From Bacteriovoracaceae bacterium (GTDB lineage Bacteria; Bdellovibrionota; Bacteriovoracia; Bacteriovoracales; Bacteriovoracaceae): a stretch of DNA of 64,000 nucleotides. Both the position numbers and the translations under genes were made by a program. Under the pieces are notes generated by a model. It saw only the letters and a program-made list of their open reading frames with translations, was not told the DNA's origin and ran no database searches. The stretch lies in NCBI GenBank assembly GCA_018649885.1, contig JABIHA010000075.1:1-64000 (forward strand), written 5' to 3'. Shown here one piece after another: positions 3,556-54,804 of this stretch; within the stretch, counting starts at the first letter, position 1, and the number at the start of each line of letters is the position of its first letter.

Positions 3556-4679
3556 TTATTCCAAACAACCCTATTTATGTAATCGGTGTAACTTTGAATT
3601 ACCTTGATCACGTGACTAGAAACTCTAGTTGCTTCGTAGTCAGAAATTTCATGTCCTGGACCGCCAAATTTATCGAAATCTTTAACCATCATTTCAATGG
3701 ATTCAAGAACTCTATCTCTTTTTAGCCCACTCATGGCAACCATCCCAACATCCATACCCTCAGGTCTTTCATGGGCCTGTCTAATCATAATGGCAGGAAA
3801 ATTTAGTAAAAAAGATTCCTCTGTAATGGTCCCACTATCGGAAACAACACAATAAGCTTCCTTTTGAAGCCTATTGTAATCAAAGAAACCAAGTGGCTTC
3901 ATGAAATTAATGAGTGAATTCAAGTTCCCCGTTTCCAACTGTTCAAGCTTCTTTCTTGTTCTAGGATGAGTTGAAACAATTATTGGATATTTGTATTTTT
4001 CTGCAAGAGCATTTAATGAATCTAGGAAATTAGAAAAATTCGTTTCGTAATCTACATTTTCCTCTCTATGAGCACTTACAATGAAGAACTCTTTTGATTT
4101 CAACTTGAGGGTTTCTAGCACTTTCGATTCAGCAATTTGAGTTTTAAAAGAATCGAGCACTTCCCTCATGGGAGAGCCTGTTTTAATTATTGTCTCAGCC
4201 TTAATCCCCTCATCCATTAGGTATCTTCTAGCGTGCTCACTGTGAACCATATTAATATCGCTCAAGTGATCAACAATCTTTCTATTTATTTCTTCTGGCA
4301 CTCTTTGATCAAAACATCTATTTCCGGCTTCCATATGAAAGATTGGAATTTGTCTTCTTTTTACAGGAATAACTGCGAGGCATGAATTAGTATCACCATA
4401 GAGTAAGCAGGCATCAGGTTTTTCTTTTTCAAGAACTTCCTCCACCCCTTCTATGACTTTTGCTATAGTTTTAGCGGCACTACCCCCAGCTGCTTCAAGA
4501 AAGTAATCTGGCTTTCGAATTCCAAGGTCATTGAAAAAAATCTCATTGAGCTCATAATCAAAATTTTGTCCAGTGTGTACTAGAACGTGCTCAAAATTAT
4601 CTTCTACAGCTTCAATAATTTTACTTAGTTTTATTATCTCAGGCCTGGTCCCAATTATCGTCAATACCTTTAGCGCCAA
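3552..4679 (-). CDS. wecB: UDP-N-acetylglucosamine 2-epimerase (non-hydrolysing)
   Basis: Interconverts UDP-GlcNAc and UDP-ManNAc in the cytosol, supplying ManNAc for surface polysaccharide. Seen: TIIGTRPEIIKL at the N terminus, VHTGQNFD, GDTNSCLA, HMEAGNRCFDQRVPEEINR, the catalytic SAHREENVD segment and SDSGTITEES at the UDP site. I place the start at a TTG (base 4679), giving MALKVLTIIGTRPEI and 375 residues. It has AGGAGA six bases upstream, and family members begin at this point. An ATG nine codons earlier (4706) is possible but would add an atypical tail containing the Shine-Dalgarno itself. First gene of a three-gene minus operon, overlapping the fusion gene by 4 bp. The 225 bp upstream separate it from a divergent GT2 gene and should hold both promoters. 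Confidence 0.93.
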   Translation of the reverse strand: MALKVLTIIGTRPEIIKLSKIIEAVEDNFEHVLVHTGQNFDYELNEIFFNDLGIRKPDYFLEAAGGSAAKTIAKVIEGVEEVLEKEKPDACLLYGDTNSCLAVIPVKRRQIPIFHMEAGNRCFDQRVPEEINRKIVDHLSDINMVHSEHARRYLMDEGIKAETIIKTGSPMREVLDSFKTQIAESKVLETLKLKSKEFFIVSAHREENVDYETNFSNFLDSLNALAEKYKYPIIVSTHPRTRKKLEQLETGNLNSLINFMKPLGFFDYNRLQKEAYCVVSDSGTITEESFLLNFPAIMIRQAHERPEGMDVGMVAMSGLKRDRVLESIEMMVKDFDKFGGPGHEISDYEATRVSSHVIKVIQSYTDYINRVVWNK

Positions 4680-4904
4680 AATTGCTCTCCTTACCTCTAG
4701 CCTCATTTTAAGGCCATTATGATCAAATAAAAAATATGTGAAACTATACCACTTCCAACAAGTAATTAATGATTTTTTTCAATCGGCGCAACGCGAGATT
4801 AGTACATGATTTACCTCTCAAACTGCATACTCTACCCTCTATAGCTTTTAACTCTACTGCAATTAGGATATCCTACGCACGAACATCCGAGCTCGCGTAA
4901 AATT

Positions 4905-17616: not shown

Positions 17617-19176
17617 CTAGTAAACTGAAAGCCCACGAAGGTGGTGGTTTTTTAGATTCGTTACGTAACTAGTGAGGTCACTGGGCCCAATGGGGTTATT
17701 TCCTACCCTTTCAACTGAAATGGCAGACATACATGTGCCTAGTGCAGCTGATTCTGTCACGCTTAATCCTGCACAAAGACCAAGTGACATACACGAAAGT
17801 AGAGCATCTCCGGCTCCAGCTACATCTATGGCATGGGTCGACAATGAACCAAAATATTCTGATTCATAGGGAGCCTGTCTATCATCCGAAGGCCTATAAA
17901 CAAGAAGGCCTTGCTCCCCTAGTGTAATTACCAGATTCTCATTTCCCGTTTTCTGAATAAGTGTCTGCGCCAATTCCTCAAGCCCAGATGTTTCATCAGC
18001 CAAGGCCAGTCTCGCCTCTTTTTCAGTAGGAGTTATAAGTGAAACTCCCTTAAATTTTGATACATGTCCAATTTGACTAGAAGCCTGAACATCTGCAAAT
18101 ACCTTTACCCCATTTTTATGAGCAATTTGAATAATCCCGTCTAGAACTTTTTGGGTAATTAAACCGTAAACAAAATCAGAAATAATCACGCCGTCTACTC
18201 TTTTAATTTCTGACTCAAGATTTTCGAGGATTGTATCCTCTAACTCCTTTGCTATTTTATGCTGCTTAAGCCTGCTAACTCTAAGTATTTTCTGGTTTTC
18301 AACCATGTATCTTATTTTAAATGTGGTAGGTCTTCCTTCATCTTTGTACAAAAATGTATTCACTCCAGATTCCGCCAATTTCCTTGAAACGAAATCTCCA
18401 GCAGGGTCATCACCAATTACTGAAAAAAAGCTACATTCAGCGCCGAGCTCTTTTACATGAAGAGCAACAATGGCAGCCCCCCCTACAAATTCTCTTGCAT
18501 TTAATTCTCTTATCACTTGCACTGGTGCCTCTGAGCTAACCCCCAGAGAATCACAGGCCACGAATTGATCAACTATAGTATCACCGATAACTAATATTTT
18601 TTGATTTTTAAAACTCTCTATGCAATTTGTGATTTTCTCAAGAGAGATATCCTGTCTTTCACAGACCTTCAGAAAGTTTTCAACTTTCCTCTCTTTTCTG
18701 GTGTCTTCTTTTTCATATAAAAATTGAGTAGATGTATATTTTACTTCACCTGAACAAAAGATCACCTTTGCACCACAGCTTTCAGCCGCTTCGATTTCAC
18801 CTCGAATAAGATCTCTTTTATCTTCGAACTCCTTACCTTTCACATAAAAATTAGGGCCCACATTGGGAATAAATTCCTCAATCGCTCCTTCGAGTGCAAA
18901 CACACCGTCAACCATGCCTAGAGTTGCCACACTTTGCGCTCTCTCGGCTTGATCAAAATAAGCTTTTGACGCTTCAGATTCTGGCTCAAAATGCTCTACA
19001 GCAACGAGGAGATAATCACCTAAGTTAGCTGCAAAATTTAGATATCTCATATGCCCTGGGTGAATCACATTAAAATGTCCAAAACAAAGAACAACAGATT
19101 TGCTTTCATTTCTCAGACACTCAATTTTCTCTTTAAGAGCAGAAGTATTCAATAATTTTAATGAGTCATTAACCAT
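17617..19176 (-). CDS. HldE-like bifunctional enzyme with swapped domain order: nucleotidyltransferase then PfkB kinase
   Basis: 519 residues. The N-terminal domain (about 25-165) is a cytidylyltransferase-like nucleotidyltransferase with the HxGH motif in NVIHPGHMRYL and the downstream KYTSTQFL (an S/T-rich ISSS-like loop). The C-terminal domain (about 190-500) is a PfkB/ribokinase-family kinase with FVGGAAIVALHV, VIGDDPAGDFV and the catalytic DVAGAGDALLS. E. coli HldE has the kinase first and the nucleotidyltransferase second. Such enzymes phosphorylate heptose 7-phosphate at C1 and later join heptose 1-phosphate to a nucleotide. GmhA-like and GmhB-like genes in the same window support that role. 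A separate sugar-1-P nucleotidyltransferase at 21.2 kb makes the final nucleotide uncertain. Confidence 0.88.
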   Translation of the reverse strand: MVNDSLKLLNTSALKEKIECLRNESKSVVLCFGHFNVIHPGHMRYLNFAANLGDYLLVAVEHFEPESEASKAYFDQAERAQSVATLGMVDGVFALEGAIEEFIPNVGPNFYVKGKEFEDKRDLIRGEIEAAESCGAKVIFCSGEVKYTSTQFLYEKEDTRKERKVENFLKVCERQDISLEKITNCIESFKNQKILVIGDTIVDQFVACDSLGVSSEAPVQVIRELNAREFVGGAAIVALHVKELGAECSFFSVIGDDPAGDFVSRKLAESGVNTFLYKDEGRPTTFKIRYMVENQKILRVSRLKQHKIAKELEDTILENLESEIKRVDGVIISDFVYGLITQKVLDGIIQIAHKNGVKVFADVQASSQIGHVSKFKGVSLITPTEKEARLALADETSGLEELAQTLIQKTGNENLVITLGEQGLLVYRPSDDRQAPYESEYFGSLSTHAIDVAGAGDALLSCMSLGLCAGLSVTESAALGTCMSAISVERVGNNPIGPSDLTSYVTNLKNHHLRGLSVY

Positions 19177-22884: not shown

Positions 22885-24444
22885 ATGAAAGTACTATTTA
22901 TATACCCAAATTATCAAGGCTACGCTCGAGTTCCACTAGGCCTCTCTATTCCAATGACAGTTCTAATGGAAGCGGGACATGAAGTTGGACTTTTTGATAC
23001 AACATTTATTTTAAGTAGTATTAATACTGACAACGAAGCACGTGAAGCTGCTGGACTTGTTAAGCCAACAGACACATCTCATTTTTTTACTCCTCATTCT
23101 CCCGAAGAAGTTGATGAAATGCTTCGGCAAAAAATTAGAGACTTTAATCCTGACCTTGTGGGAATAAGTATATTAGAAGACAACTACGAATATTCTGATC
23201 GTCTTCTTAAAGTTCTTAAAGAACTAAAGCCAGACCTTCCAGTCATTGCTGGCGGCACAACTCCAACAGTGGCTCCAGATGTACTCATTAAAAATCCTGG
23301 AATTGATTATCTCATTAGAGGAGAAGGCGAATGGGCCTTGAGAGACTTTTGTGAAAAATTTGAAAAAGGTGAATCCCTTGAAAAAGTTAATAATCTCGTT
23401 TACCTGAGAGATGACGGAATGGTGGTCTCCAATCCACTGGGACCATTTCTAAACTTAGATGACCTGCCCCCTCAAAATTTAGATTTATGGGACGACGGCC
23501 ACTTCGTAAAGGCCTACGATGGCGGCTTATATAAAACAGGCTTCTTTGAGATGTCCAGGGGATGCATGCTTAAATGCACTTACTGTGTCAACGTAACCTA
23601 CCAAGATATATTTGAAGATTCTGGCAGATATTTTAGAGTTAAGTCTGTTGAAAAAGCAGTTGAAGAAATTAAACTACTAAAAGAGAAATACGGATTTGAA
23701 AGAATATTCTTCTGTGATGATAATTTTCTTTCTATGCCGAAAATAAGATTTGATGCCTTTGTAGATGTCTGGCAAAAAGAAGTTGGTCTTCCATTTTGGA
23801 TGAATACAACTATAGAAGCCATCGGCTCTAATAGAGACAGAATTGAAAGGCTAAAAGAAGTTGGATGTTGCGGAATTGGTCTTGGCCTTGAAACAGGAAG
23901 TGACTGGTTTAGAAGAAATATTCTCCACAAAAGAATCAAAAACGATCGTATATATAAAACAGTCAGTATTTTACACGACTTTGGATACAGAACGACGGCC
24001 AATATCATGATTGGTTTTCCTGGTGAATATCTCTACGATATTTATCAAAGCATTCAATTTGTAAAAGAGATTGAGGCCAAAAGTTGTGACGTCACCTTTG
24101 TGGCCCCATACTATGCAACCCCAATTTTTAAAGTCGCCAAAAAAATGGGCCTGATTGATGTGTGGGAAGATCGCCCTGGCTTTAATGGCATGGCCCAGCA
24201 TATTGGAATGAGACAAGGCCCTCAGATTAATATTCCAACCATTTCAAAAGATAAACTCAACGAAATATATCTCACATTCATGGACTACGTTGAAGGGAAA
24301 ATTGAAGTTCCCGCTAAGTACATTCAACTTGATGAGTCTGAACCGATGATTGAAAGTAGAAAATCTGTTTTAAAAACATTTAGAGATCTATTTCTCAATC
24401 CTGCATGGTTAACTAAAGAAGGCGTTGAAGAAAGGTATCTCTAG
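22885..24444 (+). CDS. B12-binding-domain radical SAM protein
   Basis: 519 residues. The N-terminal Rossmann-like B12-binding domain (about 1-150; VLFIYPNYQGYARVPLGLS, FNPDLVGISILEDNYEYSDRLL region, VIAGGTTPTVAPD) is followed by a radical SAM core with the 4Fe-4S motif CMLKCTYC at about residue 230. FFCDDNFLS and GLGLETGS, typical of the core, come next. There is a C-terminal extension of about 120 residues. The family includes methyltransferases and cyclases, and substrate cannot be predicted. AAAGAGG precedes the ATG. It is coupled to a CMP-sugar synthetase gene (stop and GTG overlap by one base), so it may act on that sugar or its product. Two other members lie at 47.9 and 58.2 kb. Confidence 0.9.
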   Translation: MKVLFIYPNYQGYARVPLGLSIPMTVLMEAGHEVGLFDTTFILSSINTDNEAREAAGLVKPTDTSHFFTPHSPEEVDEMLRQKIRDFNPDLVGISILEDNYEYSDRLLKVLKELKPDLPVIAGGTTPTVAPDVLIKNPGIDYLIRGEGEWALRDFCEKFEKGESLEKVNNLVYLRDDGMVVSNPLGPFLNLDDLPPQNLDLWDDGHFVKAYDGGLYKTGFFEMSRGCMLKCTYCVNVTYQDIFEDSGRYFRVKSVEKAVEEIKLLKEKYGFERIFFCDDNFLSMPKIRFDAFVDVWQKEVGLPFWMNTTIEAIGSNRDRIERLKEVGCCGIGLGLETGSDWFRRNILHKRIKNDRIYKTVSILHDFGYRTTANIMIGFPGEYLYDIYQSIQFVKEIEAKSCDVTFVAPYYATPIFKVAKKMGLIDVWEDRPGFNGMAQHIGMRQGPQINIPTISKDKLNEIYLTFMDYVEGKIEVPAKYIQLDESEPMIESRKSVLKTFRDLFLNPAWLTKEGVEERYL

Positions 24445-25130
24445 TGACGCAAACTGTAGCGATCATTCCTGCAAGAGGTGGTTCCAAAGGAATCCCTAAA
24501 AAAAACCTCATCCCATTTTGTGGTAAACCACTAATAGCGTGGAGTATCGAACAGGCCGTATCAGCATCCCACATCGATTCAGTTTGGGTCACCTCAGACG
24601 ATGAGGAGATCCTATCAGTTGCACAGTCTTACGGTGCCAACCCCATACTAAGACCAAATGATATTTCGGGAGATGGTGCCAGCTCTGAGTCTGCCTGGAT
24701 TCATGCAGTTGATGACATACGAAACAAAGGCATAGATATTGATCTGGCCATTGGCATTCAGGCTACCTCTCCTCTTAGAGAGGCCAAGGACCTTGACCTG
24801 GCCATTGAAAAATTTAGAAATGATCAGCTGGATTCATTGTTTTCAGCATCACTCATTGAAGACTTCTTTATTTGGGAAGAAGACGACGACGGTAATCTTA
24901 AAAGCCAAAATTATGACCATTTAAATAGAAAAAGAAGACAAGATATCAAACCTCAATACGTTGAAAATGGATCGTTCTATCTATTTAAGCCTGATGATAT
25001 TTCTAAATTTGATAATAGGCTTAGTGGAAAAATAGGATTTTCGATCATGGAATTCTGGAAGACCTTTGAAATCGATTCGATGGAAGATTTAGAATTTTGT
25101 GAGGCCTTGATGAAGCATTACCTAACTTAA
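24444..25130 (+). CDS. CMP-ulosonate/nonulosonate synthetase, NeuA-like cytidylyltransferase
   Basis: 228 residues. AIIPARGGSKGIPKKNLIPF at residue 6 is the CTP-binding signature of the NeuA/KdsB family. VWVTSDDEEIL, RPNDISGDGASSESAW and QATSPLREAKDLD follow. The enzyme joins CMP to an anomeric C2-hydroxyl of a keto-deoxy-ulosonic acid (sialic, legionaminic or related). It starts with GTG directly on the preceding stop (TAGTG) with AAAGG eight bases upstream. The HAD phosphatase domain sometimes fused to NeuA is absent here but occurs at 30.4 kb fused to a SIS domain. It could activate the product of the KdnA/KdnB/NeuB cassette on the opposite strand. Confidence 0.9.
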   Translation: MTQTVAIIPARGGSKGIPKKNLIPFCGKPLIAWSIEQAVSASHIDSVWVTSDDEEILSVAQSYGANPILRPNDISGDGASSESAWIHAVDDIRNKGIDIDLAIGIQATSPLREAKDLDLAIEKFRNDQLDSLFSASLIEDFFIWEEDDDGNLKSQNYDHLNRKRRQDIKPQYVENGSFYLFKPDDISKFDNRLSGKIGFSIMEFWKTFEIDSMEDLEFCEALMKHYLT

Positions 25131-25196
25131 TCTTGATAAGTTACTTTAATCACCTCAATTGAATTATTCGATAAAATTTAAGCTTGTGTTCATTAC

Positions 25197-25643
25197 TTAA
25201 TTAAGTTCTTTCTCCAACATAATTATGATCTCTTCGTCATGGTCACTTTGCTGAGTACCTATAATATTGAATCCATACTTAATATTATAAATGAGCATCT
25301 CCTTGAATCGGTTTTCTGTAAATGTTCGGACTCTTGAATAACCTAAATTCGATATTATCTCCTGCTGCTTTTTTGACAGCTCTTTTGCAACGCCTTTCCT
25401 ACGAAAATCTGGATGAACACCTCCGATCCAGCTGTAGAATAGTCTTGCCGATAACTCATATCCCACCTTGTAACCAATAGGTTTGTTTTCTTCATAAGCA
25501 ATTAGGACGACTAGAGCATGTTTTACATTGGCCTCTCTTTGAAGTTTTTCTTTCGTATATGGATTATCAAAAATAGCTTCCTCAAGAGAAAAAATTTCCT
25601 CTGCAATCACATCACTTATTTTATTATACTCCTTGATTTTCAT
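25197..25643 (-). CDS. GNAT-family N-acetyltransferase
   Basis: 148 residues with the GNAT fold: ALVVLIAYEENKPIGYKVG (strand 4 region), GVHPDFRRKGVAKELSKKQQ (acetyl-CoA-binding R/QxxGxG/A equivalent RRKGVA) and VRTFTENRFKEMLIYNIKYGF. It transfers an acyl group from acyl-CoA to an amine, and the substrate is unknown. The neighbours (histidine phosphatase 6 bp upstream, nucleotidyltransferase, then the ulosonate cassette) suggest it could N-acylate the amino group introduced by KdnA, which is speculative. It converges on the CMP-sugar synthetase with 66 bp between and no clear terminator. Confidence 0.82.
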   Translation of the reverse strand: MKIKEYNKISDVIAEEIFSLEEAIFDNPYTKEKLQREANVKHALVVLIAYEENKPIGYKVGYELSARLFYSWIGGVHPDFRRKGVAKELSKKQQEIISNLGYSRVRTFTENRFKEMLIYNIKYGFNIIGTQQSDHDEEIIIMLEKELN

Positions 25644-25649
25644 TTCTAC

Positions 25650-26198
25650 CTACACCCTTCCTATGAATTCATAAGTCTCATTGGTAAATTTTAGGCCAAA
25701 CACATCTGGATTTTGAAGATTCCTCCAAAAATCAAAATTAAATTTAGGGTCAACCTTATTTAAAAACAGAGAAATAGCGTTTCCGTGAGAAGAAATAGCA
25801 ATGACTTCATCTCCTACATCAATCATGGAGTTTGTGATTGCCTGGAATACCCTGGCTTGGCATTCATTTGAAGATTCCCCATTCGGCAATTTATAGTCAA
25901 AATCAATCCAAGTTTTTTCTAATTCTTCAAGCCAGTTATCAATCATACCTGCGCTTAATTCTCTTTCTCTCAAGTCGTGGTTTTGAGTAATGTCGATGCA
26001 ATATTTCTCGGCAAATGGAGTCACTGTGTGGATAGCTCTAGGATATGGACTGGAAATGATTTTATTTATTTTGAGCTCTGCGAGTTTAGATATCAGCTCA
26101 CTAGCTTGCTTTTGTCCAGCAGGACTTAGTGGCCAGTCACACTCATTAATATCTTTGCTAGGAGCACTTTCAGCATGTCTAATAAGAATTAAGTTCAC
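25650..26198 (-). CDS. Histidine phosphatase family protein (SixA/phosphoglycerate-mutase-like)
   Basis: 182 residues. LILIRHAESAP at residue 3 gives the catalytic RHxE-type motif (RHAES), followed by WPLSPAGQKQA, SSPYPRAIHTVTP with the phosphate-binding Arg, LRERELSAG with the acid Glu, and the second catalytic His in ISSHGNAIS. It should remove phosphate from a small molecule or protein. GTG start. In a sugar locus it may act as a sugar phosphatase. It is 6 bp from the GNAT gene. No typical link to ulosonate synthesis is known to me. Confidence 0.85.
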   Translation of the reverse strand: MNLILIRHAESAPSKDINECDWPLSPAGQKQASELISKLAELKINKIISSPYPRAIHTVTPFAEKYCIDITQNHDLRERELSAGMIDNWLEELEKTWIDFDYKLPNGESSNECQARVFQAITNSMIDVGDEVIAISSHGNAISLFLNKVDPKFNFDFWRNLQNPDVFGLKFTNETYEFIGRV

Positions 26199-26245
26199 TA
26201 GCAGCTCCGAACAATAATACCAAACTTACTATAGGTACAAAAAAA

Positions 26246-26992
26246 TCAACTTAACAGGTTTAGAGAGATATTTGCAATATTAATAACATCATCCGGTTTG
26301 AGCTTTTCAGCTTCTTCATCATTATATTTATGATTATCTAAGAGCTTTTGAATCAGCCTTGAGTCATCACCACCTTGTCGAACTAACCATTTCAATGCGT
26401 TTTGCTTCGACAAACATTTCCCCGTAAGTTCTAATGATTTTATTCTTGCTGCTCCACTTGCAATCCAAATGGCTGGATCAATTGGAAGATATTTATCAGC
26501 AGGCATTTTTTTAACTTTGCGTATTATTTTTCCTATATAAGGAATCCAATATTGCTGTTTGTTGGCCTTGGCCCAATCAATTAAGTTTTCCCTACTAACC
26601 TCAGGTAAAATATCTGTAAGAGAGAACTCTCCAAAAATTTTCTTGGACTGGTATTTTAGAGACCATTGCTCTGGAGTAGGTAACGATTTTGGGAATAAGT
26701 TATGCTTTTCATTCAATAAGCTTTTTGAGTACAATTTTGAATCATCTTCATAAACAATATATCCATCTAACAGAATCTCATGGTTTTTAGTTTTCCAATC
26801 ACCTATTAATTTATCGAAGTCCTCTAGGAGAGATTTGTTCTTAATTATAAAAACGACATCGAGATCGCTACGCGAAGGTGCCCAAAACCCCGTTACACTC
26901 GATCCAAATAAAAAACATGTAGATTTAATTGTAGACTGAAGATTGAAGTGAGCTTTCAAATTACTTATGTAATCATCTAATTTCTTTTTCAT
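26246..26992 (-). CDS. Nucleotidyltransferase-fold protein (Pol beta/KNTase-like)
   Basis: 248 residues. The N-terminal nucleotidyltransferase signature FLFGSSVTGFWAPSRSDLDVVFII carries GS...SDxD (about residues 28-46), the metal and nucleotide site of this fold. The rest is a helical domain with WALKYQS-like SLKYQSKKIFGEF and many Lys. Aminoglycoside adenylyltransferases share the fold, but this protein does not look like AadA beyond the core, and a resistance role is not supported. No HEPN partner is adjacent, so a MNT-type antitoxin is not supported either. Function unknown. A 58-bp gap separates it from the KdnB-like gene. Confidence 0.7.
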   Translation of the reverse strand: MKKKLDDYISNLKAHFNLQSTIKSTCFLFGSSVTGFWAPSRSDLDVVFIIKNKSLLEDFDKLIGDWKTKNHEILLDGYIVYEDDSKLYSKSLLNEKHNLFPKSLPTPEQWSLKYQSKKIFGEFSLTDILPEVSRENLIDWAKANKQQYWIPYIGKIIRKVKKMPADKYLPIDPAIWIASGAARIKSLELTGKCLSKQNALKWLVRQGGDDSRLIQKLLDNHKYNDEEAEKLKPDDVINIANISLNLLS

Positions 26993-27050
26993 AATCTCTT
27001 TCGAATAATCAACGATAGCATCGCTTCGGGCCTTCTATTGTTATGCGCTC

Positions 27051-28112
27051 TTACATTCTAAGATAAAGCTCTTTAATCACATCCCGAGTAAAAATATTTC
27101 TCCAATCTGTACCAAGAGCATTTTCGAGAGGTTTTTCCATCAAAAGAGTTATATCAATCATCTTCTCTAACATTTCCTCTGAAAGATCAGCGCAAAGACC
27201 CCTTCTAATAGTGATATTGTGCTTTTTTACCATCTCTCTGAACTCTTCCATATAGTCTGGATAGTATTGATCGAGGTAATCGAAAGCAATGACGTTGCCT
27301 TCACCGTGATGAATACCAAAAGCATAGCTAAGACCATAAGACATTGCATGGCAGACACCAACTTCTGAGTAGACAATTGAGTTACCACCAAACATTGAGG
27401 CAATCATCATATCACCATGAGTGCCATCACCTAGAAAACGTTTTCTAGTTAGATCTAGAGCCTTTTCAGCATAAGCTTTACTAAAATCATTTAAGTAACA
27501 ACCACAAAGAGACTCAACACTATGGATATAACAGTCCATCGCAGTGTAAAAAGCCTGCTCAGTAGGAACTGTTTCCAATAAATTTGGATCAAGTACAATT
27601 TGGTCGTATAAAGAAAAATTACTATTTATTCCTTGTTTCTTTTCTGGGCCCATTAGGACACAGGTTCTTGAAACTTCGGCTCCAGTTCCTGAGACAGTTG
27701 GAATTCCAACTTTATAAACTGGTTTATTCTTGGGTAGATCCCAACCTTGATAATCACTAGATGATCCATCATTGGTTAGCATTATAGAAACGGCTTTACC
27801 TACATCTAAAACTGAGCCGCCACCGAATGCAACGACTGCGCAAGGAAGATCACCAGAGTCTTTAATCTTTTTCGTGTATTCATCAATAACTACAGTTTTA
27901 GGCTCTTCACTAGTATCAACTTGAAAAAATAGATCCCCGCTATCAACTCTAATATTGTATTTTTCAAGATCCTTAAAATAATGATCTACAAAAAATACAA
28001 TATGCCCACTTCCCGCTCTTCTCTCATCGAGAAGTTCATTTAATTGGGAAATGGCTCCCACGCCAAACATTGTTTTAGGGACAGATAAAAAGTTTTTTAT
28101 TGGGGCAACCAT
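27051..28112 (-). CDS. kdnB: Kdo 8-oxidase, KdnB-like (iron-containing alcohol dehydrogenase family)
   Basis: 353 residues. In Shewanella KdnB oxidises the C8 hydroxyl of 3-deoxy-manno-octulosonate (Kdo) to an aldehyde for amination by KdnA. Evidence: SVPKTMFGVGAISQL start, glycine-rich GGGSVLDVGKAVSIMLTN, YQGWDLPKNKPVYKVGIPT, SGTGAEVSRTCVL and the metal-binding histidines in DCYIHSVESL, CHAMSYGLSYAFGIHHGEGN. YQGWDL, SGTGAE and DCYIH are details I recall for Shewanella KdnB, which makes this assignment firmer than for a general iron ADH. It is translationally coupled (TAATG, one shared base) to the KdnA gene upstream. Confidence 0.88.
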   Translation of the reverse strand: MVAPIKNFLSVPKTMFGVGAISQLNELLDERRAGSGHIVFFVDHYFKDLEKYNIRVDSGDLFFQVDTSEEPKTVVIDEYTKKIKDSGDLPCAVVAFGGGSVLDVGKAVSIMLTNDGSSSDYQGWDLPKNKPVYKVGIPTVSGTGAEVSRTCVLMGPEKKQGINSNFSLYDQIVLDPNLLETVPTEQAFYTAMDCYIHSVESLCGCYLNDFSKAYAEKALDLTRKRFLGDGTHGDMMIASMFGGNSIVYSEVGVCHAMSYGLSYAFGIHHGEGNVIAFDYLDQYYPDYMEEFREMVKKHNITIRRGLCADLSEEMLEKMIDITLLMEKPLENALGTDWRNIFTRDVIKELYLRM

Positions 28113-29296
28113 TAAGCCTCTCCTCGGAGCTCTTTCATAGCACTTTTAGTACTAGAAATAAGGTAGTCAATATCTTTAGGATCCATATCAGATGCAAATG
28201 GAAATGAAATCATGTTATCAAAAAACCTGTCAGTTTCGGGACAATTTCCACCACTGCAACCGTTGTTGATGAAGAGCTCATACTTATATAGCGGATAATA
28301 CTGAACAACAGTTTTAATACCGTACTTAGTAAATAATAAATCAATTAAATCATCTCTCGTTTTACCATTACTTCCCTCATAGCGAGCTGGAAATAGATGA
28401 TAAGCACTAAGACAATTTTCGGGAACTTTTTGAAAGCTAAGCTCACTAAAGTCAGAAAGAGCATCGATTATTTGAGCGGCCTGATTTCTTCTTACTTCAT
28501 TAATTTTACCAATTCGCTTTAAGATCAAATCTCCTGCAAGCGCCTGGATTTCTCCCATGGCGAAATTATAAGGAATTTCTCCTGGGATCGCCTCTATGAT
28601 ATTTGACATAGCTGGCTGCCAATATTTTTTTTGGTTTAAAAAAGGACGGGCCCCAATTTTTCTAAGTCCTAAAATCTCTTCAACATACTTAGTTGAATTG
28701 GTTGTAAGCATTCCCCCTTCTCCGAGGGTGGTAATATTTTTTTGGCCGTGAAAACTAAAGCAGCCAAAATCTCCCCATGAACCTACTTTTTTACCGCAGT
28801 ATTCTGCTCCAGGAGCTTGGGCGCAATCTTCAACAACTAAAAGACCATTCTTACTGGCTATGTCCATCACTACGTCCATTTTTACTGGAAGGCCGTAAAG
28901 GTGGACAGGAACAATGACTTTAGATTTATTTGTGACTTTTTTTGCAAGATCATTTGTATCCATAACAAATGTTTCTGGATCAATATCAACAAATACAATT
29001 TTTGCTTTTCTTCTGATAAATGGCAGGGCCGTGGCTGCAAATGTATGAGCAGGAAGAAGAACCTCATCGCCCTCTTCAACCCTGCAAAGAATTGCTGCGA
29101 GCTCAAGAGCTGCTGTGGCACTACTGACACCAAAAGCATTTTCAACTCCAACAAAACTTGCGAAATTATCTTCAAATGCTTTTAGATTTGGTCCCATGGA
29201 AAGAGACTTTGCAGACTTTATCCCTTCACAAATGATATCGACTTCACTATCGGTTAATCTTGTTTGAATTCCAGGAAAATCAAGTTTTAAGTCCAT
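28112..29296 (-). CDS. kdnA: 8-amino-3,8-dideoxy-octulosonate transaminase, KdnA-like (DegT family)
   Basis: 394 residues. A DegT/DnrJ-type PLP aminotransferase: FGVSSATAALELAAILCRVEEGDEV, PAHTFAATALPFIRRKA, EDCAQAPGAEY, and the Schiff-base Lys in FHGQKNITTLGEGG. KdnA aminates the C8 aldehyde made by KdnB, giving Kdo8N. Pairing with a KdnB gene by a one-base TAATG overlap is the main evidence for this specific role. The C terminus has NNGCSGGNCPETDRFFDNMISFPF, with a Cys-rich turn shortly before the family's FPF motif. It is itself coupled by TAATG to the NeuB-like gene upstream, so the three are made together. Confidence 0.87.
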   Translation of the reverse strand: MDLKLDFPGIQTRLTDSEVDIICEGIKSAKSLSMGPNLKAFEDNFASFVGVENAFGVSSATAALELAAILCRVEEGDEVLLPAHTFAATALPFIRRKAKIVFVDIDPETFVMDTNDLAKKVTNKSKVIVPVHLYGLPVKMDVVMDIASKNGLLVVEDCAQAPGAEYCGKKVGSWGDFGCFSFHGQKNITTLGEGGMLTTNSTKYVEEILGLRKIGARPFLNQKKYWQPAMSNIIEAIPGEIPYNFAMGEIQALAGDLILKRIGKINEVRRNQAAQIIDALSDFSELSFQKVPENCLSAYHLFPARYEGSNGKTRDDLIDLLFTKYGIKTVVQYYPLYKYELFINNGCSGGNCPETDRFFDNMISFPFASDMDPKDIDYLISSTKSAMKELRGEA

Positions 29297-30180
29297 TACA
29301 CACCTCTAAGTTTTTTTCTAGCAACTAACTCACTGTCACAGAGTTTTTTCACACCGTCTCCGACTGCTCCGCCAATAAGTCTTATATCTCTAGCTAACTT
29401 ATACATACCGTGAGGTTCTACTGAAGCAATTTGATCAGTCCCCCACATAGTTCTATCAAGAGTAATATGTCTTTCGATAAAATGAGCGCCAAAAGCTGCG
29501 GCCATGACAGTTGTGTCTAGACCAAATTCATGACCACTATAACCGATAACAACTTCTGGATATCGTTCAGTGAAAGTTTGGATCACTTTTATATTTAGCT
29601 CTTCAATAGGAGCTGGGTAAGCTGAGTGACAATGACAAAGTATCAACTGGCTTGTTTTAGACATGGCAAAATTGATAGCGTCATCAATTTCTTGTTGAGT
29701 ACTCATTCCTGAAGATAAAACAAGAGGTACTCCAGTTTGAGCTGTTTTTTCAATTAACTCATAGTTAGTTAAAAAAGCAGATGGAATTTTTATAAATGGT
29801 ACGTCGTAGTTTTTGACTAAAAAATCTAGACTATCAAGATCCCAAACTGAAGCGGTAAAATGAATATCTCTTCCAGTACAGAGCTCTTTTATATCATCGT
29901 ATTCAGGTTTTTCGAATTCAACTTTCTTTTTGTAATCAAGGTAGGTCATCTCGCCCCAAGGAGTTTCTCTCATGACACTTTTTTGATGTTCAGGGACACA
30001 CACATCAGGGTTTCTTTTTTGGAACTTTACGCAGTCAAAATCAAATACTGAGGCAAACTCAATTAATTTTTTTGCGATATCAACATCACCATTATGATTG
30101 ATTCCGATTTCACCACATATATATACAGGATGACCTTTGCCTACTGTTTTATTTCCCAGCTTTACAGATGCGCTCACCAT
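29296..30180 (-). CDS. NeuB-family ulosonate synthase lacking the C-terminal SAF domain
   Basis: 294 residues. NeuB-family TIM barrel: CGEIGINHNGDVDIAKKLI, FDCVKFQKRNPD, ASVWDLDSLDFL, PSAFLTNYELI, SSGMSTQQEIDDA, CHCHSAYPAP, IGYSGHEFGLD, and ERHITLDRTMWGTDQIASVEP. These enzymes condense phosphoenolpyruvate with an aldose to give a keto-deoxy acid. Classical NeuB is about 340-350 residues because of a C-terminal SAF (antifreeze-like) domain. Here the chain ends right after the barrel. The other synthase in the window (51.8 kb) has the domain. TAAGGAGAAA precedes the ATG. It should make the acid that KdnB and KdnA modify, and the acceptor sugar is unknown. Confidence 0.88.
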   Translation of the reverse strand: MVSASVKLGNKTVGKGHPVYICGEIGINHNGDVDIAKKLIEFASVFDFDCVKFQKRNPDVCVPEHQKSVMRETPWGEMTYLDYKKKVEFEKPEYDDIKELCTGRDIHFTASVWDLDSLDFLVKNYDVPFIKIPSAFLTNYELIEKTAQTGVPLVLSSGMSTQQEIDDAINFAMSKTSQLILCHCHSAYPAPIEELNIKVIQTFTERYPEVVIGYSGHEFGLDTTVMAAAFGAHFIERHITLDRTMWGTDQIASVEPHGMYKLARDIRLIGGAVGDGVKKLCDSELVARKKLRGV

Positions 30181-30353
30181 TTTCTCCTTATGCTTCTTAT
30201 ATTGTCTTAAATAGTAAATTAAAGACTAAATTTACAACATTACGGCCTAATAGGATAATTTATTTTTCTATTTTACTTACGACTCAACGTGACGCGTCCT
30301 GAGGAAATTATCTCTCGGTCCTGAGTATGAAAAAAATGAAAGAATTGAATGGA

Positions 30354-31496
30354 TTAAGATAGCTCGAAAATTAAATCACACAGCTCTCTGACCGCCCCTT
30401 CTCCACCATTTTTGCTGAGTACCAAATCGGAAATATCGAGTACCGGCTTATAAGCATCCCGTGGCGCACATGAGAAACCCACGAATTCCATGACCTCTAA
30501 ATCATTTAGATCATTTCCCATGTAGATTACACTTGAAGGGTCAATGCCATCGGCTAAACATTTTTCTTCTAAGTATTCTTTCTTGTTTGAACAACCATGA
30601 TGGACATCTATTCCGAGCTTTTTGGCCCTGGCCTTGACCACACTATTAACTTCGGTAGAAAGAATAAAAATTTCAATATCAGAGTTTTTTAACCTACTGA
30701 GTCCAAGTCCATCACTTCTGTCACATCTAACTAACTCGGAGCCATCATCCACAACAAAGACTTTATTATTAGTAAGGACACCATCAAAATCTAAAACAAG
30801 TAACTTTGGCTTAAAAAGATCTCTGCGTTTACGAGATGCTGAACCACTGCTTTTTTGAAGATTTGGCCCTTGATCTGAATTTAGTATGTCCCCCAATGAG
30901 GTACAAAGTGTGTTACAAACAGGTCTGTGAAGCTCTCTTGTCTCAAGGCTATTTGTTGCTGGAACATTCAAGAGAATATCTCCCCAATTTGCGAGATTTC
31001 CACTGTTAGAACCCATAAGACAGATAGACTTTATTCCAATTGATTTAGCTAATTTTAATGCATTTAAAATATTCTCACTGTTATCAGATGTTGAAATGGT
31101 TAAAAGAATATCTCCCTTTTTTCCTAGCCCCAAAAGCTGTTGAGCAAAGTGAAAGTCTGGATTCATACCATCAGAATTAGAGCTAATATTAGTGCCCAGT
31201 GAAATTGCGGCTATGGAATATTGAAGGTTAGTACAAAAGCTTTGAAGCTCTCCTGGAATCTGCTCTTTAAAATTCGCCTTTACACTTTCAGGAAGTGAGC
31301 CTTTAGGGTCTGTCCCAGTGAGCAATTGCGATGCAACTTGCTCACTGTCAAAAGCACTTCCACCAGTTCCACAGGTAAAAATAGTCCCACCGGATTTGGA
31401 GCTTTCATACAAACCCAAAAGCGCCTGCTCCAATGGAGCTTTGATTTTTTCTAGCGCAGGGTAGCGATTTATTAGCTCTTCAATGCTTCTTTGCAA
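30354..31496 (-). CDS. Fusion: SIS-domain sugar isomerase + KdsC/NeuA-C-type HAD phosphatase
   Basis: 380 residues. Residues about 1-210 form a SIS domain with FTCGTGGSAFDSEQVASQL (phosphate loop) and TISTSDNSENILNALKLA, closest in plan to GmhA. Residues about 225-380 form a HAD phosphatase of the KdsC type with LVLDFDGVLTNNKVFV (motif I), LSTEVNSVV (motif II) and GNDLNDLEVM (motif IV). KdsC-type enzymes dephosphorylate 3-deoxy-ulosonate phosphates. Isomerase and phosphatase on one chain would supply both ends of a condensation pathway: make the aldose phosphate, then remove phosphate from the ulosonate. The linker (SGSASRKRRD) is basic and Ser-rich. It lies 173 bp upstream of NeuB on the same strand. 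Confidence 0.88.
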   Translation of the reverse strand: MQRSIEELINRYPALEKIKAPLEQALLGLYESSKSGGTIFTCGTGGSAFDSEQVASQLLTGTDPKGSLPESVKANFKEQIPGELQSFCTNLQYSIAAISLGTNISSNSDGMNPDFHFAQQLLGLGKKGDILLTISTSDNSENILNALKLAKSIGIKSICLMGSNSGNLANWGDILLNVPATNSLETRELHRPVCNTLCTSLGDILNSDQGPNLQKSSGSASRKRRDLFKPKLLVLDFDGVLTNNKVFVVDDGSELVRCDRSDGLGLSRLKNSDIEIFILSTEVNSVVKARAKKLGIDVHHGCSNKKEYLEEKCLADGIDPSSVIYMGNDLNDLEVMEFVGFSCAPRDAYKPVLDISDLVLSKNGGEGAVRELCDLIFELS

Positions 31497-36052: not shown

Positions 36053-37771
36053 ATGAATGATCAGTTTGGTGCAATTGTAACTGCAAGAATGGGATCAAGT
36101 AGATTTCCTGGAAAGTCCATGGTGAATATTTGTGGAAAACCTTCCCTTCAATGGCTAATCGAAAGAGTTCTTTCTTCCAAAAATATAGATGAGTTAATTA
36201 TTGCGACAACAATTGCAGAAAAAGACCTTCCAATAGTTGAGTTAGCAAAAAAGTTAGGAGTTCTTTGTATTCAAGGTCCTGTTGAGGATGTTCTGACCAG
36301 AGTCTATGAAGCATCTCTTTCCTTAAAATCTGATAGACTAATCTACCTCACAGGAGATTGCCCACTAACAGATCCAGGCATTATTGACTACATGATCGAC
36401 ATTTATAGGTCAAAAAATGAAGATTATCTAAAGAACTTCCAATGGGGTCCTGACGCAAAAAAAGAATGTGGATTCCCCAATGGACTAGATGTGGAAGTCT
36501 TTAGTAAAGAAATATTAAATTCTGTCCACGAAAAAGCAACTGACCCATGGCTCAGGGAACATGTTACAGAACCAATGTACACGTGGAAGGAATTCTCTCA
36601 CTTCACAGTTGAGGCCCCTGAAAAATGGAGAAGGCCACACTATAGAATATGTATAGATACAAAAGAAGACTACCAGCTTGTGAATACCATTTTTGAGGAA
36701 CTGATTGCTCAAAAGGTAGGCATTAGCGCCGAGAGTGCTATCACCTACCTAGATGACAATCCTGATCTTCTTAAGATTAACCAAACAACATCTCAAGCCA
36801 AGTACACTGCATGTATAATTGGACTAGGTAATATTGGATTTCTCTACGATTTAGACCCGAAACTTGACGGGATTCAAACCCATGCCAGTGCATATAGAAG
36901 ATGGTCATCCACTCGACTCGTAAGTGGTAGCGACCTAGATGAGTCTAGGTGTAAGCTCTTTAAAAATCATTATCAATTAGAAAATGTATATTCTAATTAT
37001 CACGATATGATTGAAAATGAAAAACCAGATATTGTCTCTGTTTGCACACCTCCAGAATTACAATATCAAATTATTTCGAGTCTTTTGAAGACTGATATTA
37101 AAGCCATATGGTGTGAAAAACCTTTTGGATTAGAACAAAGGCAGTGGATAGATATTTCTAAAAAACTTGAAGAAAAAAAAGTTCAACTCTTTGTTAATTA
37201 CTGGATGAGATTTACTCCCTTATTTTCAAATCTAAAAGCATACCTTGGAGAAGGAAACCTTGGAAAAATTTGGGGTGGAACATATATTTACTCTGGAGGA
37301 GGATATAATAGTGGTACCCATGCCCTAGATATTCTCAATTATCTTTTTGGCAAACCACTAAAATTCGATGCCACTTACAAAAGAAAATTAAAAAGCGGCG
37401 ATCATGGGATTGGAACCAATTTGCATTTTAAGGATGATGTGGTTTTCAATTTATTTCCAGGTAACAAAGAAAAACACTTTACCACTGAAATTGATATATT
37501 AGGTGAAAAGGGACGAATTAGAATTTCTGATCACAAGCCATTTGTAGAATATTTTGAATCAAAACCATCTGAAATAGAAAGTGGAGTGAATGAGCTCGTA
37601 AAAATGCCACAACTTCCATTTGACGGATCAAAATCAGATATTCAATTAAATGTTATTCAAAATATTACGCATTCCCTTGATGGAAATTCCCAGGCTCTTT
37701 GCACAGGAGACGATGGGTTGTGGGCAAGCCAGTACATGGATGAATTAAAAAAATCTTTAGGAGAAAATTAA
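36053..37771 (+). CDS. Fusion: SpsF-like cytidylyltransferase + Gfo/Idh/MocA oxidoreductase
   Basis: 572 residues. Residues 1 to about 245 are a SpsF-type nucleotidyltransferase (VTARMGSSRFPGKSMVNICG, TGDCPLTDPGIID, GLDVEVFS, RICIDTKED). Residues about 252-572 are a Gfo/Idh/MocA-type NAD(P) oxidoreductase (IIGLGNIGFLYD, VCTPPELQ, WCEKPFGLE with the EKP motif, NYWMRFTP). These usually occur as two adjacent genes in glycan loci, and here no stop separates them. The order suggests channelling between a redox step on a sugar and its CMP activation, but the enzymes need not act on the same molecule. The operon around it supplies a DegT aminotransferase 1 bp downstream. Confidence 0.9.
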   Translation: MNDQFGAIVTARMGSSRFPGKSMVNICGKPSLQWLIERVLSSKNIDELIIATTIAEKDLPIVELAKKLGVLCIQGPVEDVLTRVYEASLSLKSDRLIYLTGDCPLTDPGIIDYMIDIYRSKNEDYLKNFQWGPDAKKECGFPNGLDVEVFSKEILNSVHEKATDPWLREHVTEPMYTWKEFSHFTVEAPEKWRRPHYRICIDTKEDYQLVNTIFEELIAQKVGISAESAITYLDDNPDLLKINQTTSQAKYTACIIGLGNIGFLYDLDPKLDGIQTHASAYRRWSSTRLVSGSDLDESRCKLFKNHYQLENVYSNYHDMIENEKPDIVSVCTPPELQYQIISSLLKTDIKAIWCEKPFGLEQRQWIDISKKLEEKKVQLFVNYWMRFTPLFSNLKAYLGEGNLGKIWGGTYIYSGGGYNSGTHALDILNYLFGKPLKFDATYKRKLKSGDHGIGTNLHFKDDVVFNLFPGNKEKHFTTEIDILGEKGRIRISDHKPFVEYFESKPSEIESGVNELVKMPQLPFDGSKSDIQLNVIQNITHSLDGNSQALCTGDDGLWASQYMDELKKSLGEN

Positions 37772-50186: not shown

Positions 50187-50842
50187 TTTAACTTTCCTAA
50201 AATATAAAATGTATGGGAGTCATTTATCTCTACAACACGATTCTCTCTGGGCAAAAAACCGCCTATTTCTTCTACTTCAACACCACAATTTCTTAGCTTT
50301 TCTAAGATGATATTGGGGTCAAACCAAAGGTGAGCATCTTCAGGAGTGAGCTCTCCCGATGTAAATTTATTCCAATTTTGGTTTTTAGTTGTAAAAAAAA
50401 TCGTTCCCCCCTGACCTAGTAAACTTACAAGCCCGGTCAAAGCGGTATCAATATTAAGACCACAGTTTTGAAGAACTCCAATGGAAGTCACTAAATCAAA
50501 TTTCTGGTCAATTAAATCGGTCTCAAAATTACCCGTCAATATTTCAACTCTTTTGTCATCCAAAAATTTTTCACGACAAAACTCTGCCAAATCAACACAT
50601 ACATCTATTCCAACAATATTTTGACAATGAGATGCATTCAACACAAGATCAATAAAGCTACCTGTTCCGCAACCAACATCAACCCATGAGTTTGTATCAC
50701 TCCAGTTAACTTTCTCAATCCCCAGTTTAAATCTATTGAGCATTCCCTCTCGAGATCCCCACTTTACTTTTTTGTGCTCATCTTTTTCAGAGAAGCTTTC
50801 CTGGTAATCAAGTCCTACATCTTTTGGCGAATTATGACTCAT
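50183..50842 (-). CDS. Class I SAM-dependent methyltransferase
   Basis: 219 residues. WVDVGCGTGSFIDL (SAM motif I) at about residue 57, NIVGIDVCVDLAEFCRE, FDLVTSIGVLQNCGLN and LGQGGTIFFTTKN match UbiE/COQ5-type small-molecule methyltransferases. It overlaps the PseG gene by 11 bp and the amidohydrolase by 4 bp, so it is co-translated with both. A likely role is methylation of the nonulosonate or its precursor, but that is inferred from operon context alone. Confidence 0.88.
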   Translation of the reverse strand: MSHNSPKDVGLDYQESFSEKDEHKKVKWGSREGMLNRFKLGIEKVNWSDTNSWVDVGCGTGSFIDLVLNASHCQNIVGIDVCVDLAEFCREKFLDDKRVEILTGNFETDLIDQKFDLVTSIGVLQNCGLNIDTALTGLVSLLGQGGTIFFTTKNQNWNKFTSGELTPEDAHLWFDPNIILEKLRNCGVEVEEIGGFLPRENRVVEINDSHTFYILGKLK

Positions 50843-51845
50843 TAAAAAAGCTCCTAAAATAATTCACTATTCGTTCTTTATTCTCAATTAAGTTAACTGT
50901 TTTAAAACCATGGTAGTCTTCCAAATTACTGGCAAACTTCTTTACATTTTCTAAAATCTCATTTGAGTCTAATTGATCTTGCTCTCCCAAATTAGAACCA
51001 ATTCCAAGTTCTGCAATGGCCCTGGCATTATAAATTTGGTCTTTTGATTGCACCAATACCATCATTGGCACTCCTAAAAAATACAACTCATTGCATGTTG
51101 TCCCACCGCTTGTGATTGCAAAATGACTAGATTGAAAAATTTCTAAAAGATTATCAGGACAATGGTAAATATTGGAATTTTCAGGAACTACTTCCAAAAC
51201 ATTTTTAACTTTTTCGCTATCGACCAATGGCCCATAGATCAAATTAATAGATTTTACACATTCAATTTCATTGATAATCAGTGCAATTTTTTGGGTCCAA
51301 TCATCAGGGTCTGATGCTCCCATAGTAATTGAAATTGAAAAATCTTTTGAAACTTTTCTGCCAACTCTTTTCACTGCTTCAAACTCACTTCGAAGCAGTA
51401 AGAACTCAGGGCCTATCATGCTATTTTCTTTGAGTTTTTCATTATAGGGAATACTAAATGCAGAAATACTTGAATTAATAATTCCTGTAAGATTCCAATC
51501 ATTTTTTTCACCGTAGTCATCAAAGGCCAAGCAGGTAAAATTAGAGTTCTTTAAATCGTCCAATATATTCTTATCGTATTGATAGGTGTCAAATACCACA
51601 ATTTTTGACTCTTCATTTTGATATTCACTCAAGGAGTTTTTTATAGAATCTTCTAGTATTTTAAATTTGTAATTTGGATAAAGCCTTGTGAAGTTTTCCT
51701 GTGATTTACTAGAAATTACAAAAAGACACCCAATCCCTTCATCTTCTAAGACATTTGCAAAGTTAATGCATCTATTTAAGTGGCCTAATCCAATATCAAG
51801 GTACCCATCGCATCGAAAAAAAACCTTGGGTTCAATTGAACTCAC
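50832..51845 (-). CDS. pseG: UDP-sugar hydrolase, PseG/SpsG-like
   Basis: 337 residues. FRCDGYLDIGLGHLNRCINFANVL at residue 9 is the PseG active-site opening (R/G-GHxxR with the catalytic His). ISITMGASDPDDWTQKIA and SHFAITSGGTTCNELYFLGVP are the UDP-binding GT-B motifs. PseG removes UDP from UDP-2,4-diacetamido-2,4,6-trideoxy-altrose to release the sugar for condensation by PseI. It is coupled by TAATG to the PseI-like gene, which makes PEP condensation the next step. PseB and PseC follow on the other strand across a shared divergent region, completing this route except for a nearby acetyltransferase. Confidence 0.9.
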   Translation of the reverse strand: MSSIEPKVFFRCDGYLDIGLGHLNRCINFANVLEDEGIGCLFVISSKSQENFTRLYPNYKFKILEDSIKNSLSEYQNEESKIVVFDTYQYDKNILDDLKNSNFTCLAFDDYGEKNDWNLTGIINSSISAFSIPYNEKLKENSMIGPEFLLLRSEFEAVKRVGRKVSKDFSISITMGASDPDDWTQKIALIINEIECVKSINLIYGPLVDSEKVKNVLEVVPENSNIYHCPDNLLEIFQSSHFAITSGGTTCNELYFLGVPMMVLVQSKDQIYNARAIAELGIGSNLGEQDQLDSNEILENVKKFASNLEDYHGFKTVNLIENKERIVNYFRSFFNES

Positions 51846-54786: not shown

Positions 54787-54804
54787 CCATTTGAGAGAGC
54801 AAGC

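What the first reader, a model, noticed from the sequence alone, without database searches (positions are those of the whole stretch)
24444..31496. KdnA-KdnB-NeuB-SIS/HAD cassette: a possible new aminated-ulosonate pathway
Seen: KdnB-like oxidase, KdnA-like transaminase and a NeuB-family synthase coupled by TAATG junctions, with a SIS-KdsC-type fusion upstream and a NeuA-like CMP-synthetase on the opposite strand. Known: in Shewanella KdnB oxidises Kdo at C8 and KdnA aminates it, but the Kdo itself comes from KdsA and KdsC. Inference: here a dedicated isomerase, a NeuB-type (not KdsA-type) synthase and a phosphatase make the acid locally, then KdnB/KdnA add a terminal amine and NeuA activates it. 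That would give a terminally aminated octulosonate or nonulosonate not described to my knowledge. The nearby GNAT might acylate the new amine.
Basis: partly seen in the sequence, partly recalled or inferred. Interest (0 to 1): 0.8.

Follow-up and report, generated by a model that had tools for sequence, protein, structure and literature searches.

The report
Likely terminally aminated sialic-acid-like sugar pathway
This gene cassette, found with the same core genes in three bacteria of two phyla, encodes a synthase, phosphatase, oxidase, aminotransferase and activating enzyme that are predicted to build a sialic-acid-like surface sugar with an amine at its far end, likely a nine-carbon counterpart of an eight-carbon sugar known from Shewanella.

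Summary
(1) The aminotransferase is not KdnA: it is about 65% identical to those of two sister cassettes but only 26-35% to those beside other KdnBs. (2) The SIS domain is unlikely to be a dedicated isomerase: its GmhA catalytic Glu is Gln, and the two sister cassettes show no SIS. (3) The GNAT is not part of the conserved set.

Core set in three genomes (window, L094, L003): aminotransferase, KdnB, SAF-less NeuB, KdsC-like phosphatase, NeuA. On a KdnB tree of 123 rows, a 33-row branch (SH-aLRT 95) holds 19 of 20 cassette-labelled rows and none of the 67 KdnA-linked rows, with fixed residue changes. The phosphatase carries Glu56/Arg64/Lys67 of the KDN-9-P phosphatase BT1713; the genome's own KdsC has Gly/Arg/Asn. 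The genome has its own kdsA, kdsB and kdsC.

Best reading: a KDN-type (nine-carbon) acid made by NeuB and phosphatase, oxidised at C9, aminated and activated as a CMP sugar, i.e. CMP-9-amino-KDN. All chemistry is predicted. New variant of a known kind.

The parts
24444..25130 (+). NeuA-like CMP-ulosonate synthetase (228 aa), convergent to the operon
   Evidence: CTP_transf_3 95 bits; PDB NeuA chains; 56% identical to the NeuA beside SIS-HAD and NeuB in G122 (L128); PseF model 135 bits, under its cut-off 205.7
27051..28112 (-). KdnB-type Fe-ADH (353 aa), predicted terminal-alcohol oxidase of the ulosonate; cassette sub-branch of KdnB
   Evidence: PDB 5k8c E 3e-109; 50% identical to Shewanella hafniensis KdnB; separate branch in tree; MDCYIH, H255 and H269 kept
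28112..29296 (-). DegT/DnrJ/EryC1/StrS aminotransferase (394 aa), cassette type, not the KdnA orthologue
   Evidence: Pfam 298 bits; 65% and 64% to L003 and L094; KdnA 5k8b only 106 bits
29296..30180 (-). SAF-less NeuB-family synthase (294 aa)
   Evidence: PF03102 233 bits, no SAF; AF2 model pLDDT 89.9, nearest folds 2wqp, 6ncs, 1xuu
30354..31496 (-). SIS domain (about residues 1-205) fused to KdsC-type HAD phosphatase (about 230-378), TTG start
   Evidence: HAD has E/R/K at BT1713 56/64/67; SIS has Gln57 at the GmhA catalytic Glu; same fusion beside NeuB in L128
29294..29298 (-). TAATG overlap of NeuB stop and AT start
   Evidence: sequence
28110..28114 (-). TAATG overlap of AT stop and KdnB start
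   Evidence: sequence

Best explanation
The cassette is predicted to make CMP-9-amino-9-deoxy-KDN, a nine-carbon, terminally aminated, sialic-acid-like sugar, likely for a surface polysaccharide. Predicted steps: the SAF-less NeuB would condense PEP with mannose-6-phosphate to KDN-9-phosphate; the HAD domain would remove the 9-phosphate; KdnB would oxidise the freed C9 alcohol to an aldehyde with NAD; the DegT aminotransferase would turn the aldehyde into a C9 amine; NeuA would load the product on CMP. Shown: the genes, their families, their recurrence as a set in three genomes, gene fusions joining several of the enzymes, a distinct KdnB branch, and the BT1713-type residues in the HAD. Inferred: every substrate, the order of steps and the product. 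The SIS domain is likely a worn or altered isomerase that the pathway can do without.
For: Set recurs: AT, KdnB, NeuA-HAD fusion and NeuB in L003 (Bacteroidales) and L094 (another genus of the window's family). KdnB occurs in 4 of 368 genomes of the phylum at E up to 1e-60, and all 4 have a NeuB within the fetched stretch (two of them, L095 and L096, are a different type). Among the 80 KdnB loci kept from named genomes (the best of 579), NeuB is found in 1 (52 of the 80 have 4 kb on both sides). KdnB tree: the 33-row branch (SH-aLRT 95) has 19 cassette and 14 unlabelled rows and no KdnA-linked row; the sister branch (98) has 66 KdnA-linked, 13 other and 9 unlabelled rows and no cassette row. 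Fixed differences: Q160 19/19 against L 66/66; E250 19/19 against Q 66/66; L329 19/19 against W 66/66. 16 of 120 listed KdnB hits share their longest-contig length with one of 119 listed AT hits, against about 1 with jittered lengths. Fusions: NeuA-HAD (L003, L094), HAD-AT (P0290), AT-NeuA (P0309, P0325). HAD: E, R, K at BT1713 positions 56, 64, 67 in 6 of 6 HADs of interest; G000's own KdsC has G, R, N. G000 has its own kdsA, kdsC and kdsB, and G060 and L003's genome have their own KdsA, so a second Kdo route is not needed. The synthetase is NeuA-type here, but KdsB over the cut-off beside KdnB in Shewanella L070 and fused to KdnB in L076.
Against: No activity is known for any of these proteins. 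The HADs score below the cut-off of NCBIfam's KDN-9-P phosphatase model (window 100.9, L003 169.1, L094 167.2, cut-off 180), and all three pass the YrbI/KdsC subfamily model (109.6, 170.8, 163.4; cut-off 106.95). That E56/K67 part KDN-9-P from Kdo-8-P phosphatases is recalled (Lu et al. 2009), not read here; the calls show only that PDB mutants exist at these two sites. Other 9-phosphate substrates might fit the same residues. Mannose-6-phosphate is not shown; a type I mannose-6-phosphate isomerase is only weakly seen in G000 (28 bits, cut-off 22; PF01238 none). The tree is a quick one with 48 open forks; 16 of the 19 cassette labels rest on contig-length fingerprints, and two pairs of rows are the same or nearly the same protein. 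L096 has a related AT (43%) with a KdnB outside the branch.
Confidence: 0.45

Rival explanations
1. Same five-step logic but another nine-carbon precursor: NeuB uses ManNAc-6-phosphate or another hexose phosphate, giving a 9-amino-Neu5Ac-like or other aminated nonulosonate.
For: NeuB, HAD and NeuA fit any 9-phosphate route; the NeuB closest in the PDB by sequence is a Leptospira enzyme named sialic acid synthetase; the window has a WecB-type UDP-GlcNAc 2-epimerase at 3552-4706 (236.8 bits, cut-off 210.2), though about 25 kb away and of the non-hydrolysing kind.
Against: No ManNAc-forming epimerase or kinase was noticed in L003 or L094 (read by eye, not searched). The NeuB lacks SAF, the domain that in N. 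meningitidis NeuB carries Arg314, mutated in 4ipi and 4ipj; its place in SAF and its role with the N-acetyl group are recalled.
Confidence: 0.25
2. Plain Kdo8N: KdnB and the aminotransferase act on housekeeping Kdo, and NeuB, SIS-HAD and NeuA belong to a separate sialic route that merely sits beside them.
For: Kdo genes are in G000; the one characterised KdnB named in PMC5125639 (passage read) serves Kdo8N; L128 has SIS-HAD, NeuB and NeuA without KdnB or AT hits, so those three can stand alone.
Against: TAATG coupling with NeuB; the same trio in three genomes of two phyla; HAD-AT and AT-NeuA fusions; KdnB sub-branch with fixed changes; no KdnA and no KdsB beside it.
Confidence: 0.12
3. One reading: the SIS domain makes a special aldose phosphate (pentose or heptose) that NeuB condenses, giving an eight- or ten-carbon acid.
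For: SIS is fused to HAD beside NeuB in the window and in L128.
Against: Catalytic Glu is Gln and TSGNS is TSDNS in the window SIS; no SIS hit in L003 or L094.
Confidence: 0.08
4. KdnB and the aminotransferase aminate another sugar (not a ulosonate) of the same polysaccharide.
For: The aminotransferase's best PDB match is a scyllo-inositol transaminase; L096 has a related AT (43%) with a KdnB of an outside branch.
Against: KdnB-family membership, AT fusions to NeuA and HAD, coupling to NeuB.
Confidence: 0.08

Closest known systems
Kdo8N pathway of Shewanella (KdnB, KdnA, KdsB)
   Same: KdnB-type oxidase next to a DegT aminotransferase and a CMP synthetase; amination of the terminal carbon is the predicted result
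   Different: Aminotransferase of another DegT subfamily; KdnB on another branch; NeuA-type in place of KdsB-type synthetase; its own synthase and phosphatase
KDN route of Bacteroides thetaiotaomicron and Prymnesium parvum (KDN-9-P synthase, KDN-9-P phosphatase, CMP-KDN synthetase)
   Same: NeuB-family synthase, KdsC-like HAD with E56/R64/K67 of BT1713, NeuA-type synthetase, predicted phosphorylated route
   Different: KdnB and aminotransferase added; HAD fused to SIS or NeuA; substrate not tested; HADs under the KDN-9-P phosphatase model cut-off
Pseudaminic acid pathway (a separate set at 50832-55944 of this window)
   Same: NeuB-family synthase and DegT aminotransferase
   Different: There the amine is set on a UDP-sugar before the synthase (recalled); here the oxidase-aminotransferase pair is predicted to act after it

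Membership tests
Kdo8N pathway (kdnA-kdnB-kdsB) | KdnB-family oxidase | tested here: met
   PDB 5k8c E 3e-109, 50% to Shewanella; but on a separate branch
Kdo8N pathway (kdnA-kdnB-kdsB) | KdnA orthologue beside KdnB | tested here: not met
   AT is 26-35% identical to ATs near other KdnBs and 65% to L003; 5k8b 106 bits, rank 36 of 56
Kdo8N pathway (kdnA-kdnB-kdsB) | KdsB-type CMP synthetase beside KdnB | tested here: not met
   NeuA-type: PseF model 135 bits, best KdsB model 61.8 bits; NeuA-HAD in L003 and L094; control L070 KdsB 234.7 bits, cut-off 155.2
Kdo8N pathway (kdnA-kdnB-kdsB) | Kdo is the substrate | not testable with these tools
   needs enzyme assay
KDN-9-P route | NeuB-family synthase rather than KdsA | tested here: met
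KDN-9-P route | phosphatase with Glu56 and Lys67 (meaning of these residues recalled) | tested here: met
   E, R, K in the window, L003 and L094
KDN-9-P route | HAD above the NCBIfam KDN-9-P phosphatase cut-off (180 bits) | tested here: not met
   100.9, 169.1 and 167.2 bits
KDN-9-P route | mannose-6-phosphate as substrate | not testable with these tools
   needs enzyme assay
GmhA-type isomerase (SIS domain) | catalytic Glu and His (roles recalled) | tested here: not met
   Glu is Gln57, His kept
Pseudaminic acid CMP synthetase (24444-25130) | PseF equivalog cut-off | tested here: not met
   135 bits, cut-off 205.7; instead 56% to the NeuA beside SIS-HAD and NeuB of L128

The most novel reading that the evidence does not exclude
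KdnB has a second, unrecognised branch that works on nine-carbon acids: together with its own aminotransferase family it makes a class of zwitterionic, C9-aminated nonulosonic acids (9-amino-KDN type), spread thinly but widely over uncultured bacteria by transfer of a small cassette.
Probability: 0.45. Interest if true: 0.75.

Novelty: new variant of a known kind. Interest (0 to 1): 0.6.

Why it matters
If true, terminal amination is not a quirk of Kdo in Shewanella-type LPS but a portable module that also turns sialic-acid-like sugars into zwitterions. It gives a sequence rule for finding the sugar (KdnB with Q160, E250 and MEKPL beside a SAF-less NeuB), and it warns that genes named '3-deoxy-alpha-D-manno-octulosonate 8-oxidase' by homology need not act on Kdo.

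Tried and rejected
NeuA at 24444 as the PseF of the pseudaminic set at 50-56 kb: rejected, because a 56% relative stands beside SIS-HAD and NeuB in L128 and the PseF cut-off is not met.

GNAT, His-phosphatase and nucleotidyltransferase (25197-26992) as pathway parts: no hit at E 1e-4 in 80 KdnB loci, L094, L095 or L096; left out.

More cassettes were sought without result: IMG/VR with the AT alignment (13 loci, at most 42% identical); plasmids with AT (E up to 1e-60: 1 record, 41%) and with KdnB (E up to 1e-50: none); phages with KdnB (E up to 1e-30: none); 393 genomes drawn from the order of L003's genome with the AT alignment (E up to 1e-110: only L003's own genome).

The AT-KdnB fusion P0335 lacks the first part of KdnB, has no contig and has Asn at the place of H255; it was not used as evidence. 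P0331 (AT with a GT2-type domain) was not followed up. So 5 of the 120 listed AT hits are fusions by length and Pfam.

L138 first looked to me like HAD-SIS in reversed order; SIS_2 scores only 12.4 bits there (cut-off 27) and no NCBIfam SIS model matches, so I dropped it as evidence for SIS.

Papers: the Kdo8N origin paper (PMC3610993) is not held. Searches for a terminally aminated nonulosonate showed none in the rows listed (20 of 52, 20 of 217, 13 of 13, 20 of 79), so print is not excluded. Passages, not whole texts, were read in PMC6200933, PMC3210612, PMC5125639, PMC8510873 and PMC3438082. The KDN-9-P phosphatase specificity paper (Lu et al., JBC 2009) and the Arg314 paper are recalled, not read; one search did not list the former.
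Full report
Observation. The window is part of a polysaccharide gene region (contig C37 of G000, 5.45 Mb, 151 contigs). The genes are as described. Pfam, NCBIfam and PDB searches give NeuA-like (24444-25130 +), KdnB (27051-28112 -), DegT aminotransferase AT (28112-29296 -), NeuB without SAF (29296-30180 -) and SIS-HAD (30354-31496 -). NeuB/AT and AT/KdnB overlap as TAATG, and SIS-HAD ends 173 nt before NeuB.

Recurrence. Of 80 KdnB loci kept from named genomes (the best of 579 relatives), one, L003 (a Bacteroidales MAG), has NeuB, an AT 65% identical to the window's, and NeuA and HAD in one protein of up to 390 aa; 52 of the 80 have more than 4 kb on both sides of KdnB. In the window's phylum KdnB is in 4 of 368 genomes at E up to 1e-60. 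G060 (L094) has AT, KdnB, NeuA-HAD, a methyltransferase-like gene and NeuB in a row. G273 and G363 (L096, L095) have KdnB of an outside branch with an AT and a NeuB; the NeuB of L096 has SAF and a cytidylyltransferase domain, that of L095 is split over two frames at an unresolved residue. The core trio AT, KdnB and SAF-less NeuB is therefore seen in three genomes of two phyla.

Links among the enzymes. The AT search listed 120 proteins; fusions among them include HAD-AT (P0290, AT 56% to the window) and AT-NeuA (P0309, P0325; 51 and 52%). NeuA-HAD is fused in L003 and L094. 16 of the 120 listed KdnB hits share their longest-contig length with one of 119 listed AT hits; jittered lengths give about 1. 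These are fingerprints, not read neighbourhoods.

KdnB branch. A tree of 123 KdnB rows puts 19 rows labelled cassette (3 by neighbourhood, 16 by contig fingerprint; L094 equals P0013 and L003 is nearly P0020, so about 17 distinct) and 14 unlabelled rows on one branch (SH-aLRT 95). The sister branch (98) holds 66 KdnA-linked, 13 other and 9 unlabelled rows and no cassette row. L095 (KdnA-linked label) and L096 (cassette label) lie outside both. It is a quick tree with 48 open forks. Between the 19 and the 66 there are fixed changes at window residues 160 (Q for L), 250 (E for Q) and 329 (L for W), and near-fixed ones at 327 (K 15 or R 4, for P) and 328 (P 18 of 19, for L); the MDCYIH motif is kept. 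E250 lies five residues before His255, a metal ligand by recalled Fe-ADH anatomy; that these changes alter substrate choice is inference.

Aminotransferase. KdnA of the PDB ranks 36th of 56; in 64 other KdnB loci with an AT hit the AT is 26-35% identical, against 65% in L003. It belongs to the DegT family but is not the KdnA orthologue.

Phosphatase. BT1713 (3e81) aligns with the L094 HAD, and the PDB chains 4hgq and 4hgr differ from it by Ala at Glu56, and at Glu56 and Lys67. E, R and K stand at 56, 64 and 67 in the window, L003, L094, L128, L138 and P0290; G000's own KdsC has G, R, N. Among 22 HAD hits in the 30 loci given for (of 56 match rows; three of the 22 are the window, L128 and L138 again), 14 have E and K: 11 of 11 in long frames of 354 or more residues and 3 of 11 in short ones. 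That these residues part KDN-9-P from Kdo-8-P phosphatases is recalled. Against: the NCBIfam KDN-9-P model cut-off is not reached.

SIS. The fusion SIS-HAD recurs in G122 (L128) beside NeuB and a 56% NeuA, without KdnB or AT hits. In L128 and four stand-alone relatives the GmhA Glu and TSGNS are kept; the window has Gln57 and TSDNS. The fetched L003 and L094 have no SIS hit. The domain is more likely altered than a needed isomerase.

Kdo background. On C147 G000 has kdsA (311.6 bits, just under the cut-off 314), kdsC (134.1, over its cut-off) and kdsB (TIGR00466 167.3, cut-off 155.2); G060 and L003's genome have their own KdsA over the cut-off. The cassette is thus not needed for Kdo. In Shewanella L070 KdnB stands with a KdsB over its cut-off, and in L076 KdsB is fused to KdnB, whereas the cassette has a NeuA-type synthetase. 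Synthase and synthetase both switch to the nonulosonate type, which is the main argument for a nine-carbon product.

Mechanism. NeuB, then HAD, then KdnB, then AT, then NeuA, giving CMP-9-amino-KDN (confidence 0.45; some C9-aminated nonulosonate about 0.7). KDN-9-P from mannose-6-P is the known chemistry of the nearest complete route (PMC6200933, passages). The rows listed by four paper searches show no terminally aminated nonulosonate (capped lists); an 8-amino-9-deoxy nonulosonate of Flexibacter maritimus is known (PMC3210612, passage), with the amine inside the chain.

Verdict. Observation confirmed, interpretation partly supported, new variant of a known kind, interest 0.6.

Noticed in passing
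L096:5773-10520 and L095:1666-5728: A third KdnB type (42% to the window), outside both main branches, stands with an AT, a glycosyltransferase-like gene (by eye) and a NeuB; in L096 the NeuB has SAF and is fused to a CTP_transf_3 domain (589 aa).
   Followed up: partly
L128:9016-17211 and L138:962-5186: HAD proteins beside a SAF-less NeuB, fused to SIS in L128 and to about 170 residues of unclear kind in L138 (SIS_2 only 12.4 bits), with two SDR-like genes and a TIM-barrel-like gene shared by both loci (37-39% identical): another NeuB pathway of unknown product.
   Followed up: partly
window 50832-55944: Separate pseudaminic-type set: PseG-like (126 bits, cut-off 153.6), NeuB-family synthase with SAF, PseB (over cut-off) and PseC-like (413 bits, cut-off 423.5).
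   Followed up: partly
L076:9176-11071: KdsB-KdnB fusion (632 aa, KdsB 172.5 bits, cut-off 155.2) in an uncultured Aquimarina; L051 has KdsB, a HAD-like gene (by eye) and KdnB in a row; neither locus has a hit to KdnA or the window AT.
   Followed up: partly
window 17617-19176: Protein with a cytidylyltransferase-like domain first and a PfkB kinase second, the reverse of the HldE order (that order is recalled); SIS, HAD and nucleotidyltransferase genes at 8022, 21930 and 21196 could belong to a heptose route.
   Followed up: no
window 36053-37771: CTP_transf_3 domain fused to a GFO/IDH/MocA oxidoreductase.
   Followed up: no
window 25197-26992: GNAT, His-phosphatase and nucleotidyltransferase genes follow KdnB on the same strand; none was found in the other KdnB loci examined.
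   Followed up: partly
P0345: A relative of the cassette AT (51%) is named from Methanoperedens, an archaeon; its neighbours were not seen.
   Followed up: no
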